Shown here: positions 1 through 7,836 of the stretch, piece by piece | Layout: every line of letters starts with the position of its first letter | How positions within the stretch are numbered: position 1 is the stretch's first letter | From: Fodinibius sediminis | GTDB taxonomy: Bacteria > Bacteroidota > Rhodothermia > Balneolales > Balneolaceae | Assembly (NCBI RefSeq): GCF_900182555.1 | Contig: NZ_FXTH01000017.1 | Coordinates: 1-64,000 of the forward strand | Direction: 5' to 3' | Length of the DNA: 64,000 nt | Notes under the pieces: model-generated | What the model was told of the DNA's origin: nothing | What the model saw: only the letters and a program-made list of their open reading frames with translations | The model's database searches: none | Translations under genes and position numbers: made by a program

Positions 1-208
1 AATCCATCCTGCATACTGGCTCGAAGCCTACTGAACTGTTCGTGGTTACACGGCGGTGGCAAATGGGCAGGGCAATCATTGCGCTCGAGTTCTATAGCTC
101 AATGTCGTCTGACTGGTTCCCTGCCTGCCACCAACCTTCGGTTTGAAGGAATGTCTGCTCATCAATAATACCAGTCAATACGAAGTGCATTAAACATAGG
201 ATGTCGTT
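1..208 (-). mobile_element. End of a second IS110 copy (noncoding left end)
   Basis: This stretch matches 2290-2497, the noncoding segment upstream of the IS110 transposase, with scattered substitutions and two compensating one-base indels. Similarity ends in both places after GATGTCGTTA, where the flanks diverge. Its transposase should lie to the left of the window, reading leftward. The stem (55-60 with 127-132, 66-72 with 119-125) and the small CCTTC/GAAGG hairpin are conserved, so this is a second copy of the candidate bridge-RNA region. Confidence 0.8.
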
Positions 209-250
209 ATATGGCTTACTTAAAAATTAATTCTGCTTGATTCATATAAC
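206..250 (+). repeat. Possible ORF-less mini-cassette (GTTATATG ... CATATAAC)
   Basis: GTTATATG at 206-213 is the exact reverse complement of CATATAAC at 243-250, the arrangement expected of a cassette start and its R'' core. Only about 30 bases lie between, with no room for a gene. The next core, CGTTATTT at 253, follows directly. It may be a collapsed cassette or part of a larger attC stem. Confidence 0.4.
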
Positions 251-348
251 ACTCGTTATTTGTATTATTATAAGATGAATAGCATTGGTATTATGCCAAT
301 GTTGGCATGCATTAAACAAAATATAAGCAAACAATTAAAAAGGGTATT

Positions 349-663
349 ATGAAAATACAGTTCAATACTGATAATAACATAGAGGGTACAGAAAAGCTGG
401 AAACGTTTGTATCTAAAAAGATTAGAAATGGATTAAAACACTTCGTTGACAATGTTTCTCGCATTGAAGTACATCTTTCAGACCAGAATGCTGATAAAGG
501 AGGTACAGATGATATACAATGTAAGATAGAAGCAAGGGTAGAAGGTATACAGCCTGTGATTGTGGTAAGTAAAAGTGGTTCAAAAGAGAAGGCTCTTATT
601 GATGCTATAGATAAAATGAAGGCAACATTGGGTACCATAATGGGAAAAATTAAAGATAAATAA
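349..663 (+). CDS. Ribosome hibernation factor HPF/YfiA-like protein
   Basis: This 104-residue protein resembles the short HPF/RaiA (S30EA) family, which binds the 30S subunit in stationary phase and blocks mRNA and tRNA binding. It begins MKIQFNTDNN, alternates strands and helices in the family manner, and contains the basic stretch VSKKIRNGLKH and a lysine-rich C-terminus. It lacks the long-form C-terminal dimerisation domain. The gene fills a cassette bounded by CGTTATTT (253-260) and AAATAACG (658-665); its stop codon lies inside the closing core, as is common in integron cassettes. The upstream AAAAAGGGTATT is a weak ribosome site. The family assignment is from sequence pattern only. Confidence 0.75.
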   Translation: MKIQFNTDNNIEGTEKLETFVSKKIRNGLKHFVDNVSRIEVHLSDQNADKGGTDDIQCKIEARVEGIQPVIVVSKSGSKEKALIDAIDKMKATLGTIMGKIKDK

Positions 664-735
664 CGACACGCCAACAAAATCTATAACCAATAGCGCCTTG
701 GAGGAACGCTTCTGCTCATAGCCAAATCGTTAGGC
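658..735 (+). repeat. attC-like site closing the HPF cassette
   Basis: R'' core AAATAACG (658-665) is the reverse complement of the cassette start CGTTATTT (253-260). About 65 bases downstream, GTTAGGC (729-735) starts the next unit. TAACGA (661-666) and TCGTTA (727-732) are also inverted with respect to each other, giving the imperfect palindrome expected of a folded attC strand. Confidence 0.6.
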
Positions 736-749
736 GTATTTAAACTATC

Positions 750-1128
750 ATGAAATATATTCCCATTCTATTACTAATCTCAATATTGTGTAGTTGTGAT
801 AATACACTGCAACCTGAAATTATCTCGGTTGAGGGGAAAAATGTTTCTGATGCCACAGACCCGATATTAACTCATCCTGAGTTGTTGACTCCATTAGATT
901 CTCTAACGGCTATCTTTTCAACAAAAGCCAAGACTATCGAATTTGTTGGTACACTTTGTTTATATAACATTCACCGTTTATAAAAATGGAAAATTGATTG
1001 AACCTTAAGTTATCAAAGGAGGAAATGAACAGATTAATAAAATTGCAGAAGGAATTGTTCAAACAGCGAAGTTTAAGCCTGGAACTCAAAAAGGAAAACC
1101 AGTTGCTGTAAAATATGGATTGCCTTAA
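750..1128 (+). pseudogene. Broken TonB C-terminal-domain lipoprotein
   Basis: The first 77 codons encode a lipoprotein start (MKYIPILLLISILCSC, lipobox ISILCSC) and stop at 983. A second frame takes over near 950 and reads a TonB-like C-terminal segment ending FKPGTQKGKPVAVKYGLP, with an in-frame TAA at 1006-1008. One frameshift plus one stop codon break the gene. TonB C-terminal domains contact outer-membrane receptors; this small lipoprotein variant is probably dead. It occupies a cassette bounded by GTTAGGCGTATTT (729-741) and AAATACGCCTAAC (1142-1154), the longest perfect boundary pair in the window. Confidence 0.65.
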
Positions 1129-1141
1129 AGGTCAACTTGGT

Positions 1142-1270
1142 AAATACGCCTAACCCCTTTTAAAAAAATGTCAAGCGGACACCCCTCGCCAATTCTTGCC
1201 CGCCTCCCATTTATTAGTTAACCTTTCATTTGTAAATATTTTAAAACATTGGCGCCTGCACCTTAAGCGC
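1142..1270 (+). repeat. attC-like site, interrupted by IS110
   Basis: R'' AAATACGCCTAAC (1142-1154) closes the TonB-like cassette. The segment GCGGACACCCCTCGCCAATT (1175-1194) recurs at 4431-4450 with one mismatch, and CTTGCCCGCC...TTAAGCGC (about 1195-1270) recurs in degenerate form at 7723, 8873, 20736 and 31852. The matching R' (GTTAGAGC) is now displaced to 2495 on the far side of the IS110 element. Confidence 0.6.
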
Positions 1271-1288
1271 AATGAACTGTGATTAAAG

Positions 1289-2242
1289 TCAAGCAGCCAA
1301 TGACTTTTTTTCGTTGAACGCTTCGCACCTCTTGTCGACGGCAAAAGCCTGTCGCAACAGATTGTGGGCAATGGCTATTTTAATAACCTTCTCCGGTTTC
1401 CCTCGGCTTTTAAGGCGTTGGTACATTTTCTTGCAGGCCGGATTACTACGCTTTGCTGACCAGCTGCACATATACAGTAGCTTCCGTAGTTGTGGGCAGC
1501 CCAATTTGCTAATACTTCCACGGCCCCTAACCGATGATCCGGACTCCCAGATCCCGGGGCAAATGCCCACGTAGCTGGCCAATTTTCTGGCGCTATCAAA
1601 GCGACGAAATCCATCTGTAATCGTTACAAATTCGATAGCTGTTTGGCCAATGCCAGGTATCGTTAAAAGCGCTTCCATAACCTGCTCGTAATGTTTTTCA
1701 GCCAATGTTTCCATGCGACGATCAATACGGGTAATATTTTTTTCTATCTCCTTTTGCATCTTCCCGTTAAGTTCATTCACCATGTGCTCAATTTCTTTAT
1801 GTTGATTAAATGCTTCGGCCTGTCCGGTGAGAATGGCTTTCTGCCGCACTAGCCCTTCCCGCATGCTCATTAGCTTTTTCAGGCCTCGTCGGGCTTCAGA
1901 GGGAGGACACCACAGCTCCGGTTGCTGATCTATGCCATACTGGGCAATTAAAGCAGCATCTTTGGCATCTGTTTTTATTCGGGCCAGCTTCATTTGTCCA
2001 TACCGGCGGATAACCAGTGGATTTACGACACTGACTGTTAATCTCTGCTCATATAAATGGCTGGCTAATCCCAGATAATTAGGACCGGAGGCTTCCATTA
2101 TAACATGGACTTCCTCATCGATTATCCAATCTTTAAATGCTTTCCATCCGCTCTGATTGTTAGTAAACCGTCTATTCCGTTGTCGTTGAGTACAAAGGCA
2201 GTCAAACCTCTCTTTCGAGATATCTATACCAATAGTGTTCAT
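1289..2242 (-). CDS. IS110-family transposase (RNA-guided recombinase family)
   Basis: This 317-residue DEDD transposase has the N-terminal motif GIDISKERFD (catalytic Asp), a central acidic position in VIMEASGPNY, and DAKDAALIAQYG near residues 100-110. The C-terminal Transposase_20 domain has GIGQTAIEF followed by ESGSSVRGRGSISKLG, the region that carries the catalytic serine in the family. IS110 recombinases work with a bridge RNA made from the element's noncoding end. The gene looks intact and full length. Its start is the ATG at 2240-2242; the long upstream noncoding region follows. Confidence 0.92.
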   Translation of the reverse strand: MNTIGIDISKERFDCLCTQRQRNRRFTNNQSGWKAFKDWIIDEEVHVIMEASGPNYLGLASHLYEQRLTVSVVNPLVIRRYGQMKLARIKTDAKDAALIAQYGIDQQPELWCPPSEARRGLKKLMSMREGLVRQKAILTGQAEAFNQHKEIEHMVNELNGKMQKEIEKNITRIDRRMETLAEKHYEQVMEALLTIPGIGQTAIEFVTITDGFRRFDSARKLASYVGICPGIWESGSSVRGRGSISKLGCPQLRKLLYMCSWSAKRSNPACKKMYQRLKSRGKPEKVIKIAIAHNLLRQAFAVDKRCEAFNEKKSLAA

Positions 2243-2299
2243 CGCTTCGTATATTTAAATTTAACGGTGAAGAAGGTTTCCGTGATCAAAATCCATCCT

Positions 2300-2440
2300 G
2301 CATACTGGCTCGAAGCCTGCTGAACTGTCCGTGGTAACACGGTGGTGGCAAGGGGCAGGGCAATCATTGCGCTCGAGATCTATGGCTCAATGTCGTCTGA
2401 CTGGTTCCCTGCCCGCCACCAACCTTCCGTTTGAAGGAAT
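2300..2440 (-). ncRNA. Candidate IS110 bridge RNA
   Basis: Read on the - strand, the region forms a small hairpin (CCTTC/GAAGG, 2423-2437), a long stem (GCCACC 2415-2420 with GGTGGC 2344-2349, CCCTGCC 2407-2413 with GGCAGGG 2354-2360) enclosing a 46-base loop, then a third hairpin (GGCT/AGCC near 2306-2316). The loop contains ATGTCGT (2390-2396), identical to the element's terminus at 2490-2496, and CATTGCGCT (2365-2373), whose reverse complement AGCGCAATG occurs at the other terminus (1266-1274). These look like donor guides. Ends are approximate. Confidence 0.6.
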
Positions 2441-2586
2441 ATCTGCTCATCAAAAAATACCAGTCAATACCAAGTGTTTTAAACATAGGATGTCGTTAGA
2501 GCAACCTTTTCGCATTTCGCTCGTTGTTAGTTTGTACTTTTCTTTGTACTATTTAAAAGTCACTTAATAACACAACCTATAGCGTT

Positions 2587-2871
2587 ATGAAACGTGTCCA
2601 ACTTGATAAAGACATTCAGCCGTTGTCCGAATTTCGGGCCAATGCAGCCTCAATGATTGAAAAAGTTAAAACGGAACACCGTCCCCTTGTTATTACACAA
2701 CATGGAAAAAGTTCTGCTGTATTGCTTGATGTGGGTGATTATGAGCAATTGATCGATACCATTGAATTGCTTCAGGAAATCAATCAAGCCCGTCAAGAAA
2801 TTGAAGATGGCAAAGGTACCCAGCATGAAGAAGTTATAGGTTCATTGAAGGAACGGTTGGGGAAAGCATAA
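2587..2871 (+). CDS. Phd/YefM-family antitoxin
   Basis: This 94-residue protein has the family pattern: an N-terminal DNA-binding part (LSEFRANAASMIEKVKTEH, then PLVITQHGKSSAVLLDVGDY) and a polar, flexible C-terminus that would wrap the toxin. Phd/YefM proteins neutralise a partner toxin and repress their own operon. The stop codon TAA is followed immediately by the ATG of the toxin gene, so translation is coupled. The pair fills one cassette bounded by GTTAGAGCAACC (2495-2506) and GGTTGCTCTAAC (3176-3187). Toxin-antitoxin cassettes are known to stabilise large integron arrays. Confidence 0.88.
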   Translation: MKRVQLDKDIQPLSEFRANAASMIEKVKTEHRPLVITQHGKSSAVLLDVGDYEQLIDTIELLQEINQARQEIEDGKGTQHEEVIGSLKERLGKA

Positions 2872-3174
2872 ATGCGTATTGTCTGGTCTCCTACTTCCCA
2901 ACGAAAAATTAATGAAATAGTAGACTACATCTCGAAAGATAATGTAAATGCTGCATTGGCACTGGTTGAAGAATTTGAAAAACGTGTCCAGCATTTAAAA
3001 AAACATCCTCGCTCAGGTCAAATGGTTCCAGCCCTAAATGATGAGATGGTCCGACAGCTTGTAGTTCAGTCTAATTATTTGATTATCTATGAAATCAATA
3101 AGGATCACATCGATATTTTGACTATTCGCCACGCCAGGCAAGATAAAGAAGAATCTGAGATTAAGCCTGAATAA
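2872..3174 (+). CDS. ParE/RelE-superfamily toxin
   Basis: This 100-residue protein matches the ParE/RelE fold: it starts IVWSPTSQRKINEIVDYIS, has a central HLKKHPRSGQMVPALNDEMVRQLVV segment, then YLIIYEINKDHIDILTIRHARQ, the typical C-terminal strand pattern. ParE toxins act on DNA gyrase, while RelE toxins cut mRNA in the ribosome. The IRHARQ ending and the GQMVP turn fit ParE better, but the target cannot be told from sequence. It is co-transcribed with the antitoxin with no intergenic base, and its stop codon lies one base before the cassette's closing core. Confidence 0.88.
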   Translation: MRIVWSPTSQRKINEIVDYISKDNVNAALALVEEFEKRVQHLKKHPRSGQMVPALNDEMVRQLVVQSNYLIIYEINKDHIDILTIRHARQDKEESEIKPE

Positions 3175-3175
3175 A

Positions 3176-3187
3176 GGTTGCTCTAAC
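3176..3187 (+). repeat. Closing core (R'') of the toxin-antitoxin cassette
   Basis: GGTTGCTCTAAC is the perfect 12-base reverse complement of the cassette start GTTAGAGCAACC at 2495-2506. In integron arrays this pairing arises because the start and end of a cassette come from one attC when it is circular. Confidence 0.7.
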
Positions 3188-3222
3188 CAGCGCATACCCT
3201 TAGCTAAGATTCAAGAAAAAGT

Positions 3223-3531
3223 TTAAAATAGTCTTTCCAGGCTGCATTTTTCCCCGCATGGAAGGGGTTCCATTTTAAAAAGTTTTGGTAAGTGGGTGGC
3301 AATCGTGGTCAGGTCGTTGGAAAACCCCTCGCAGAGTTCAAATTCGGTCCCGTCTTGCCGGTAGCGGCTATAAAGATCCAGCCGACGGCTACTCACATCC
3401 ACCGCCAGCAGCATGTGGTTAGCGTCCGGCTTGTCTGTATCGTGAAATTGTGTGATCTTTCTCATAGGCATCCTCACTGGTTTTGTTCGTGGTAGAATAA
3501 CCAAGGTGACGTTCTTCGGTGAAGACGTCAA
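3223..3531 (-). pseudogene. N-terminal remnant of a second IS110-type transposase
   Basis: The reading frame contains NHMLLAVDVSSRRLDLYSRY and later FSNDLTTIATHLPKLF, the N-terminal pattern of IS110 transposases (Asp of the DEDD site, then the FSN motif), and then stops. The C-terminal two thirds are missing. Residues before MPMRKITQF are probably not native. It is not a copy of the intact element at 1289-2242. It lies in the attC-like region after the toxin-antitoxin cassette and in the same orientation as the other two IS110 sequences. Confidence 0.6.
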
Positions 3532-3539
3532 CCTTGGGG
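3509..3539. repeat. Imperfect hairpin next to the IS110 remnant
   Basis: CCAAGG and CCTTGG form the outer arms, with GACGT and ACGTC inside, around a GGTG loop. A wider pair, ATAGGCATCC (3465-3474) and GGATGCCTA (about 3538-3546), encloses it. It may be a relic of the element's noncoding end or of an attC stem. Confidence 0.4.
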
Positions 3540-3540
3540 A

Positions 3541-3625
3541 TGCCTAATAGTATGATTAAGTGGGACACGTCTCGCCCCCGAATGCCTCGGGGCCACCTTC
3601 TGACTTTTTAGCTTGTCGTTCATTA
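3541..3625 (+). repeat. Degenerate attC-like segment
   Basis: GCCTAATAG followed by GGGACACGTCTCGCC and later TCGTTC...TTTAACTAATC resembles, in the same order, the left half of the attC-like site at 1148-1220 (GCCTAAC, GCGGACACCCCTCGCC, TTAGTTAACC). The local hairpin CCCCGA/TCGGGG is specific to this copy. It precedes the RibD-like gene. Confidence 0.4.
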
Positions 3626-3802
3626 TTTAACTAATCAACATACGAGGTCCTTATATGGGTTGGCAATACTTCAATAATAGAAATTGTCACATTTGCCCTG
3701 TGGTAAAGTCGTAAACCCCCTATGCGATTGATTTGTCCAGCTGATATAATTAAAACGTTCGCTTCATTTAAAGCAAGCATAATCTAAACTGAACAAAATA
3801 GT

Positions 3803-4378
3803 ATGAGTAAACTAATTGCCGCAATCAATACGACACTTGACGGGATTTGCGACCATAACGCAGGGCTACCTGATGAAGAAATACACCAACATTATACGGA
3901 GCTATTAGGTCAAGGAGATGCAATTCTATATGGCAGGACCACGTATGAACTAATGAAATTTTGGCGAACCTTGTTGGAAAATCCTTCCGAAGAAAAATCA
4001 ATGAATGACTTTGCTAAGGCTATAGACCAAATTCCGAAAATAGTTTTCTCCCATACGCTTAAAAATGTGGATTGGGAAAGTGCAACCATAGCAAAGCGTG
4101 ATTTAAAAGAAACAGTTTTAGATCTCAAGCAATCCCGCAGTGGCGGGAGTAAAGACATTTTTGTTGGCAGCCCGAGTTTAATTATACAGCTGATGAAACT
4201 TAATTTAATTGATGAATACCAGCTTTGTGTTCATCCTGTTGTTGCAGGAAGCGGTTTACCATTATTTGAAAATATAAATGACAGGACTATTCTTAAACTC
4301 ATAAAAACTAAAACCTTTAGTGGTGGTGCAGTAACACTTTACTATGAACCGACAAACGAAAAAACAACAAATAGCTAA
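3803..4378 (+). CDS. RibD C-terminal/dihydrofolate reductase-like protein
   Basis: This 191-residue protein belongs to the RibD_C (DHFR-fold) family: MSKLIAAINTTLDGICDH at the start, ILYGRTTYELMKFW (NADPH-site strand and helix), and GGSKDIFVGSPSLIIQLMKLNLIDEYQLCVHPVVAGSGLPLF, the family's signature C-terminal half. Related proteins reduce pyrimidine or pteridine substrates with NADPH, but most small stand-alone members have no known substrate. It is common as a mobile cassette gene. It sits alone between attC-like sequences. A second, unrelated-copy member of the family occurs at 34271-34837. Confidence 0.85.
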   Translation: MSKLIAAINTTLDGICDHNAGLPDEEIHQHYTELLGQGDAILYGRTTYELMKFWRTLLENPSEEKSMNDFAKAIDQIPKIVFSHTLKNVDWESATIAKRDLKETVLDLKQSRSGGSKDIFVGSPSLIIQLMKLNLIDEYQLCVHPVVAGSGLPLFENINDRTILKLIKTKTFSGGAVTLYYEPTNEKTTNS

Positions 4379-4420
4379 CATTGTATAATACATTTTCACG
4401 CAAGAGCCGCCATATATCCA

Positions 4421-4527
4421 GCGCATTAACGCGGACACACCTCGCCAATTCTCTGCCTCTCTTGGTTTTAAGCCTCTTCTTTCGTTAGTTGCCAACTTAA
4501 CAAAAATCCGCGCGCCGGTTATGCGCC
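4421..4527 (+). repeat. attC-like site after the RibD-like cassette
   Basis: GCGCATTAAC then GCGGAC (4421-4436) are inverted relative to TCCGCGC and GTTATGCGCC (4507-4527), with an insertion between the arms on one side. That two-box, asymmetric stem is how attC sites fold (R''-L'' with L'-R'). The internal CCTCGCCAATTCT is shared with the site at 1175. The next unit starts at TTAGGCCGC (4536-4544). Confidence 0.6.
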
Positions 4528-4637
4528 AATCGTCATTAGGCCGCTTAATTTGCATTTCTGGCTCCCTTTAAGAAGATTTTATTAGTTTTACTTTTTTGTA
4601 AAAACATACGTCATCAAGATCAAAAGTAAATAAAGGG

Positions 4638-5420
4638 GTGGTTATGGATACTCAAACTTCAGAAAGGGTGGATAGTATTAGAGATTCACAGCCAATAGTA
4701 GATAGCTATTTTTATATTGGTTTAGCCCTATTTATGATAGTAATCGCCATTATTGGTTTTTGGAACAATTATTTTGGTCCTTTCTTTTTTGGTTCACTGG
4801 ATGCTCATTGGTTAATTCATGTTCATGTAGTTGTCTTTGGTGCTTGGCTGGTACTTTTTCCTGGTCAGGCAATTCTCGCTTCCAAAGATGAAATCAATTT
4901 TCATCAACAGATTGGTAGTTATTTTGGAATACTTTGGGGTATTCTTCTTCTGATACTTGGGTTTATCGTTACCTTTGCTGTTATTGCTCCTGGTATAGGA
5001 GAAGAACATGAGGTCAAAAATTATGCTGTCCCACTAATAGCTTCCCTCGGTGATCTGTTAGCATTCGCTATTCTTCTTGCTGCTGCAATTCTATACCGAA
5101 AAAAACCTGCTATACATAAACGCTTCATGGTATTGGCTACTGCATCACTCATGGAAGCTCCTGTTGCTAGAATTGCAAGAGAAGTAGGAATGCCCGAAGG
5201 TTTCCTGGTTTTAGTTTTGGTGAGCCTTTCCCCAGTTTTTATTGCAATGGGCTATGACCGCTGGAAACAAGGACGTATCCATAAAATCTATTGGATAGGG
5301 CTTGGATTTTTATTTTTCAAACTTACTCGTTTTATATGGGCTGCTGAATCAGATTGGTGGCTTGCTTCATCAGAATGGTTGATAGAAAATATTTATCCAA
5401 TTATAAACTCAATAATTTAA
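4638..5420 (+). CDS. Polytopic membrane protein of unknown function
   Basis: This 260-residue protein has about seven hydrophobic segments (roughly residues 27-45, 58-78, 92-118, 130-150, 158-165 region, 185-203 and 216-235) separated by short polar loops. Histidines in the first loops (DAHWLIHVHVVVFGAW, FHQQIG) and later HKRFM could bind a cofactor, but this is speculation. I do not recognise a named family. It fills a cassette bounded by TTAGGCCGC (4536-4544) and GCGGCCTAA (5440-5448). A GGGGTGGTT ribosome-site-like stretch precedes the ATG. Confidence 0.7.
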   Translation: MVMDTQTSERVDSIRDSQPIVDSYFYIGLALFMIVIAIIGFWNNYFGPFFFGSLDAHWLIHVHVVVFGAWLVLFPGQAILASKDEINFHQQIGSYFGILWGILLLILGFIVTFAVIAPGIGEEHEVKNYAVPLIASLGDLLAFAILLAAAILYRKKPAIHKRFMVLATASLMEAPVARIAREVGMPEGFLVLVLVSLSPVFIAMGYDRWKQGRIHKIYWIGLGFLFFKLTRFIWAAESDWWLASSEWLIENIYPIINSII

Positions 5421-5439
5421 TCCCATTTTATTATGAAAA

Positions 5440-5500
5440 GCGGCCTAACCCCTTAAAAGAGGAAAATGTCAAGCAGACAGTCCCCACCTACCTCTAGGTC
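5440..5500 (+). repeat. attC-like left half closing the membrane-protein cassette
   Basis: GCGGCCTAA (5440-5448) is the reverse complement of TTAGGCCGC at 4536-4544. The following CCCCTT...AAAATGTCAAGCAGACA matches the left half of the attC-like site at 1148-1183. No clear R' half is visible downstream, so this is the last well-preserved boundary in the series. Confidence 0.55.
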
Positions 5501-7666: not shown

Positions 7667-7800
7667 ATCCGTTATATAAACTGTCTGTGAGCGCAATTGC
7701 GACCTGGGCTGCGGTATTCCGCCTTGCCCGCTTTCCATTTATTCGTTAAGCTTTTATTCAATAAGTGATACTGCATTGTGGCACCTTCAGCTTAAATGCA
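7667..7800 (+). repeat. Degenerate attC-like site
   Basis: CTTGCCCGCTTTCCATTTAT followed by TCGTTAAGCTTTTATT and, 30 bases on, GTGGCACCTTCAGCTTAAAT aligns with 1195-1270 (CTTGCCCGCCTCCCATTTAT ... TTAAGCGC) over about 80 bases at roughly 65-70% identity. It sits between two + strand genes. Confidence 0.5.
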
Positions 7801-7836
7801 GGGTCGATATACTCCTTAAGTGATCTCCTACCCACG

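What the first reader, a model, noticed from the sequence alone, without database searches (positions are those of the whole stretch)
206..5449. Integron-like cassette array revealed by paired inverted cores
Five adjacent units start with a core and end with its exact reverse complement: GTTATATG/CATATAAC (206/243), CGTTATTT/AAATAACG (253/658), GTTAGGCGTATTT/AAATACGCCTAAC (729/1142), GTTAGAGCAACC/GGTTGCTCTAAC (2495/3176) and TTAGGCCGC/GCGGCCTAA (4536/5440). Each larger unit holds one or two + strand genes and no promoter is obvious. This pairing arises when a cassette's start and end derive from one attC. Such arrays are poorly documented in the Balneolota/Rhodothermota lineage that this window suggests.
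Basis: partly seen in the sequence, partly recalled or inferred. Interest (0 to 1): 0.8.

Follow-up and report, generated by a model that had tools for sequence, protein, structure and literature searches.

The report
Integron array invaded by RNA-guided elements
The start of this window is part of a real chromosomal integron (a gene-capture array), and its recombination sites have been hit repeatedly by two kinds of small jumping DNA whose own guide RNAs match those sites, which would lock neighbouring gene cassettes together.

Summary
The finding holds. The genome encodes an integron integrase (C13:411-1349, 428.9 bits, cut-off 265, patch region present). A covariance model built mostly from relatives' sites recognises attC in the window: 4405-4548 at 104.8 bits, plus two sites interrupted by insertions. 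Paired start/end cores are systematic: 41 of 51 cassettes from three genera match over 9 bp or more, against at most 0.75% of mismatched pairs.

Corrections: one cassette (3651-4418) was missed; unit 1 is a 45-bp remnant; the repeat at 1-203 and 1275-2492 is an IS110 element; contig C38 continues the array to the left.

Beyond the claim: two distinct IS110-type elements sit inside attC sites. Joining their flanks restores attC at 11 of 12 insertions traced in this genus and one neighbouring genus. Their upstream non-coding regions carry guides matching attC arms, and guide letters change with the target across homologues. attC targeting is known for the IS1111 group, whose RNA lies downstream; here the RNA region lies upstream, as in IS110.

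Not shown: attI, contig linkage of intI to this array, RNA expression, any activity, or the host's name.

The parts
1..203 (-). Upstream (left-end) non-coding region of a first IS110a copy; the contig starts inside the element
   Evidence: 92% identical to 2290-2498; the same sequence also begins contig C2
206..250 (+). Unit 1: cassette remnant, start GTTATATG and end CATATAAC with no attC behind it
   Evidence: joining C38 and C17 without the IS restores the attC before it (103 bits)
254..728 (+). Cassette 2: S30AE/HPF-like protein (349-663); its attC (about 660-728) is short and divergent
   Evidence: PF02482 E 5.9e-9; model R1 only 10.9 bits at 674-742; fold z -2.0
729..1154 (+). Cassette 3: short lipoprotein-like reading frame that looks frame-broken; 14-bp core pair
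1148..1274 (+). attC of cassette 3, cut by IS110a just before its right core
   Evidence: R1 56 bits at 1171-1265; 79.5 bits by HMM when the IS is removed
1275..2492 (-). IS110a, complete IS110-type insertion sequence; transposase 1289-2242
   Evidence: PF01548, PF02371; NF033542 208.6 bits over cut-off 140; ends defined by restored sites
2285..2492 (-). Predicted bridge RNA of IS110a, upstream of the transposase; target guides at 2365-2372 and 2388-2396, donor guides at 2294-2299 and 2321-2328
   Evidence: guide matches; fold z -3.05; homologues change guide letters within a conserved frame
2495..3187 (+). Cassette 4: Phd/YefM-type antitoxin (2587-2871) and ParE/RelE-type toxin (2872-3174); 15-bp core pair
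   Evidence: PF02604 and PF05016
3181..3657 (+). attC of cassette 4, interrupted at 3196-3554 by an IS110-like remnant (reading frame 3223-3531, - strand)
   Evidence: R1 31.9 bits at 3555-3654; joining restores the site (48.1 bits); relatives of the remnant
3651..4418 (+).
   Evidence: PF01872 E 3.1e-15; core pair TTATATGG / CCATATAtC with decayed outer bases
4405..4548 (+). Complete attC between cassettes 5 and 6
   Evidence: R1 104.8 bits, E 7.5e-22
4536..5449 (+). Cassette 6: unknown 260-residue membrane-like protein (4638-5420)
   Evidence: core pair; no family match
7695..7819 (+). Possible decayed attC; the array may once have reached this far
   Evidence: R1 17.2 bits, E 0.013 in 12 kb; 19.0 bits by HMM; weak

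Best explanation
The left 5.5 kb of the window continues a chromosomal integron cassette array: IntI recombines attC hairpins, so each cassette starts and ends with two halves of one site. Two distinct IS110-type insertion sequences have jumped into these attC sites. Each is predicted to make a bridge RNA from its upstream non-coding region, with one loop matching the two halves of an attC arm and the other matching the IS's own junction. IS110a enters the right arm (GCGCAATG|TCGTTA). IS110b (contig C38) enters the left arm on one strand or, in homologues, the right arm on the other. Shown: the integrase gene, attC sites, cassette boundaries, insertion points, guide-target matches. Inferred: that the RNAs are made and used, that the integron is or was active, that intI and this array are one integron, and that an interrupted attC no longer releases its cassette.
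For: IntI over cut-off. attC model with covariation, 49 double-changed cells against 15.8 shuffled; hits in window and genome and in all 12 genomes of the genus. Core pairs in 51 cassettes, also found without the model. Removing IS110a restores attC at 4 of 5 genus insertions and a 475-codon gene at the fifth; removing IS110b restores attC at 7 of 7. Guides match target and donor. Divergent IS110a homologues with other guides sit at other sites fitting those guides. IS110b guide letters follow the target at 13 of 14 positions, permutation P 0.0024.
Against: No RNA, transposition or recombination data. IS110a guide P values (0.003, 0.03) are uncorrected for the four orientations tried, and the 6-nt donor guide CATCCT is too short to count. 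For IS110b the right-hand guide was not significant. The permutation ignores relatedness. Guide and target of L171 match only in part. attI was not identified, and C13 is not physically joined to C38/C17. Single attC folds are not more stable than shuffles; support comes from covariation.
Confidence: 0.88

Rival explanations
1. The array is a cluster of attC sites lacking its own integrase (CALIN), physically separate from the intI locus on C13, and no longer recombines.
For: intI and array are on different contigs; the genome has attC clusters on several contigs (C13 right end, C26, C32, C16); units 1, 2 and 5 and the 7695 site look decayed.
Against: intI sits at the left end of C13 with its upstream side facing the break, as in G001 where intI lies divergent from a long array; C38 shows the array running on to the left.
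Confidence: 0.35
2. The IS110 elements are in attC only because cassette arrays tolerate insertions; the guide matches are coincidence.
For: Arrays are dispensable DNA; individual guide matches are short.
Against: Insertions are at fixed positions within attC, not in cassette bodies; guides and targets change together in both element families; the one non-attC IS110a insertion in the genus is in a gene at a near-match, GCGTAATG|TCGTTG.
Confidence: 0.05
3. The core pairs are chance inverted repeats and there is no integron.
For: The 8-bp pairs alone are within shuffle range.
Against: The long pairs are not; 41 of 51 cassettes in relatives have 9 bp or more; attC model and integrase.
Confidence: 0.01

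Closest known systems
Sedentary chromosomal integrons (Vibrio-type)
   Same: IntI of the integron class, many cassettes, attC sites alike within one lineage, intI divergent from the array in relative G001
   Different: Lineage-specific attC sequence; paired cores usually longer than 7 bp (median 11), though class 1 cassettes gave 4 to 12; attI not identified
Salinibacter ruber M1 integron (PMC9024848)
   Same: Complete integron in the wider Bacteroidetes/Chlorobi group
   Different: Reported there as a single case; here IntI over cut-off in 31 of 59 genomes searched, own included. Not compared by sequence.
IS1111-attC group (ISKpn4, ISPst6; PMC11187229 and references there)
   Same: DEDD transposase and an RNA-guided element that enters one end of attC
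   Different: Non-coding region upstream instead of downstream; no 11-13 bp subterminal inverted repeats (longest 5-6 nt in the 40-nt ends)
IS110-type bridge-RNA elements (IS621; PMC11208160)
   Same: IS110-family transposase, upstream RNA region with target and donor guides
   Different: Guides match integron attC arms; the papers read here do not describe an IS110-type (upstream-RNA) element with that target

Membership tests
Integron | Integron integrase with the IntI-specific patch | tested here: met
   428.9 bits against cut-off 265; aligns with 2A3V across the patch and catalytic motifs; groups with IntI1
Integron | Array of attC sites able to fold as hairpins | tested here: met
   Model R1 hits; stem covariation
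Integron | Cassettes bounded by two halves of one attC, genes mostly in one direction | tested here: met
   Core pairs; cassette genes on the + strand
Integron | attI beside intI, joined to the array | tested here: inconclusive
   C13 ends 410 bp upstream of intI; no attI identified
Integron | Cassette excision and insertion by IntI | not testable with these tools
   Needs an experiment
IS110 family, IS110 type | DEDD transposase with Transposase_20 domain | tested here: met
   PF01548 and PF02371; NF033542 over cut-off for both elements
IS110 family, IS110 type | Non-coding region upstream of the transposase with target and donor guides | tested here: met
   by sequence only; RNA not observed
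IS1111-attC group | Insertion at one end of attC | tested here: met
   Restored attC at 11 of 12 insertions
IS1111-attC group | Non-coding region downstream of the transposase | tested here: not met
   It lies upstream in both elements
IS1111-attC group | Subterminal inverted repeats of 11-13 bp | tested here: not met
   Longest exact inverted match between the 40-nt ends is 5 nt (IS110a) and 6 nt (IS110b)

The most novel reading that the evidence does not exclude
In this lineage the integron attC is a standing target for at least two separately evolved IS110-type families, and one of them moves between the two arms of attC by changing its bridge-RNA guide; the insertions lock cassettes into fixed pairs, so RNA-guided elements shape how the array evolves.
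Probability: 0.55. Interest if true: 0.65.

Novelty: new variant of a known kind. Interest (0 to 1): 0.52.

Why it matters
It adds a lineage in which integrons are common to a map that has few entries in this part of the tree. It gives a natural set of predicted bridge RNAs with known targets in which guide and target change together, useful for learning how IS110 elements retarget. It also offers a testable way in which cassettes become fixed in an array.

Tried and rejected
Rfam gave nothing at gathering scores in the window and only chance-level matches in C38. A 9-bp target duplication around 3196-4416 (CCAGCGCAT twice) was considered and dropped, as both copies are ordinary attC sequence. 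The RT gene in C38 was first suspected to be a group II intron maturase; it fits AbiP2-type defence RT far better. Gammaproteobacterial IntI loci could not serve as an array control, since no attC chain was found on them; class 1 cassettes were used instead, five of six measurable. A first guide test for L153 failed through a wrong search string, so L153 and L171 were judged from the alignment instead. The first tree call failed on a missing row name; the rerun kept 28 rows, because loci with IntI on the minus strand were left out. The paper library returned nothing on integrons in Balneolota.

Full report
The observation. All five core pairs exist, one start off by one base. Two pairs of 12 bp or more beginning GTTA occur in the first 5.5 kb, where dinucleotide shuffles give 0.003. 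The shorter pairs would not stand alone. A sixth unit was missed: TTATATGG at 3651 with CCATATAtC at 4410-4418, around a RibD_C-like gene.

The integron. The window is the start of contig C17 of a 50-contig genome. That genome holds one protein over the integron-integrase cut-off, C13:411-1349. It aligns with the Vibrio integrase structure 2A3V across the patch region and catalytic motifs and groups with IntI1, apart from three Bacteroidota recombinases. Of 59 genomes searched, own included, 31 have one over cut-off. I aligned 40 attC sites, 38 from same-genus relatives and two from contig C38; no window site was used. The stem has 12 consensus pairs, 96.7% of cells paired, and 49 cells changed on both sides against a shuffle mean of 15.8 and at most 6 when the partner is slid. 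The model R1 hits the window at 4405-4548 (104.8 bits), 1171-1265 (56) and 3555-3654 (31.9), and weakly at 7695-7819 (17.2). It hits 24 places in the genome at E up to 1 and 14 to 48 places in each of the 11 other same-genus genomes. In 130 kb of 14 other integrase-bearing contigs it gave one weak hit.

Cassette logic. Between consecutive attC sites in three genera, 51 cassettes have matching start and end cores: median 11 bp, 41 of them 9 bp or more, while cores taken from different cassettes reach 9 bp in at most 0.75% of cases. A search for chained pairs that uses no attC model finds the same arrays. The match usually runs past the 7-bp box described for attC (own knowledge). Five measurable class 1 cassettes gave 4, 5, 6, 8 and 12, so this is a tendency and not a unique trait. 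Contents in the window: an S30AE-like protein, a frame-broken lipoprotein-like gene, a Phd/ParE-type pair, a RibD_C-like protein and an unknown membrane-like protein. C38 has two related gene-poor cassettes and one with an AbiP2-type defence RT split by a stop.

What interrupts the array. Window 1275-2492 is a complete IS110-type element; 1-203 is the end of a second copy. Other ends of copies begin contigs C2, C22 and C38. C22 and C2 belong together, because removing the IS restores a 475-codon RNA-methyltransferase frame. That leaves C38 with C17, and removing the IS there restores an attC of 103 bits. C38 reversed is therefore the array's continuation to the left. C38 also carries a second, distinct IS110-type element (IS110b), itself inside the attC of the RT cassette; removal restores that site at 119.5 bits. 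A remnant insertion lies at 3196-3554.

Targeting. Homologues of both elements were traced in relatives. Joining flanks restores attC at four of five IS110a insertions in the genus and at all seven IS110b insertions examined; the seventh, L169 in a neighbouring genus, is weak at 21.4 bits. At attC, IS110a always enters GCGCAATG|TCGTTA. Its upstream region carries CATTGCGC, complementary to the left half, and CAATGTCGT, identical to core and right half; it also carries TGAACTGT and CATCCT, matching the donor junction. Against shuffled sequence the two target guides give P 0.003 and 0.03 and TGAACTGT 0.033, uncorrected; CATCCT is too short to count. The predicted RNA folds at z -3.05. Two relatives at 50-55% protein identity keep the RNA frame but change the guide letters, and sit at other sites that fit their own guides, the second only in part. 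IS110b homologues sit in the left arm (TATAACC) or in the right arm on the other strand (CATAAGG, CATAAGC, CATAACG), and the two guide letters after ATAA follow the target at 13 of 14 positions, permutation P 0.0024, ignoring relatedness.

What is inferred. No RNA, transposition or recombination was measured. That an interrupted attC cannot release its cassette follows from IntI needing both arms; PMC11616780 proposes the same for ISPa21 in class 1 integrons and notes that experimental evidence is limited. A Shewanella survey found IS110-family elements in arrays but none in attC (PMC9229058).

Known or new. Integrons are known, and a complete one has been reported in the wider group (PMC9024848). 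Guide-RNA targeting of attC is known for the IS1111 group (PMC11187229). The elements here fail two marks of that group, the downstream non-coding region and the subterminal inverted repeats, and meet those of IS110. I therefore file the array as a new member of a known kind and the attC-programmed IS110 elements as a new variant. Only open-access papers were searched, so absence of a report is weak evidence.

Noticed in passing
L016 (G000:C38) 1956-3458, - strand: A cassette with a 13-bp core pair carries an AbiP2-type defence reverse transcriptase split by one stop codon (frames of 151 and 347 residues); pseudogene or assembly error not resolved.
   Followed up: partly
L016 207-551 and 3617-3960, - strand: Two cassettes without an obvious gene share sequence with each other (GTTAGTTTGCCCGCCGGCCTT...); cassettes starting the same way occur in relatives (L122, L123), so a recurring gene-poor cassette family is possible.
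   Followed up: no
G011 (same genus): 17 attC hits but no integrase match at E 1e-60 or better: attC clusters without a detected IntI.
   Followed up: no
G000 contigs C13 (138-164 kb), C26 (10-21 kb), C32, C16, C1, C27: Further attC hits and clusters away from the window; their relation to the intI locus is unknown.
   Followed up: no
L153 (G044) and L171 (G072): IS110a-like elements at 50-55% protein identity sit in non-attC sites that look like dispersed repeats, with other guide letters.
   Followed up: partly
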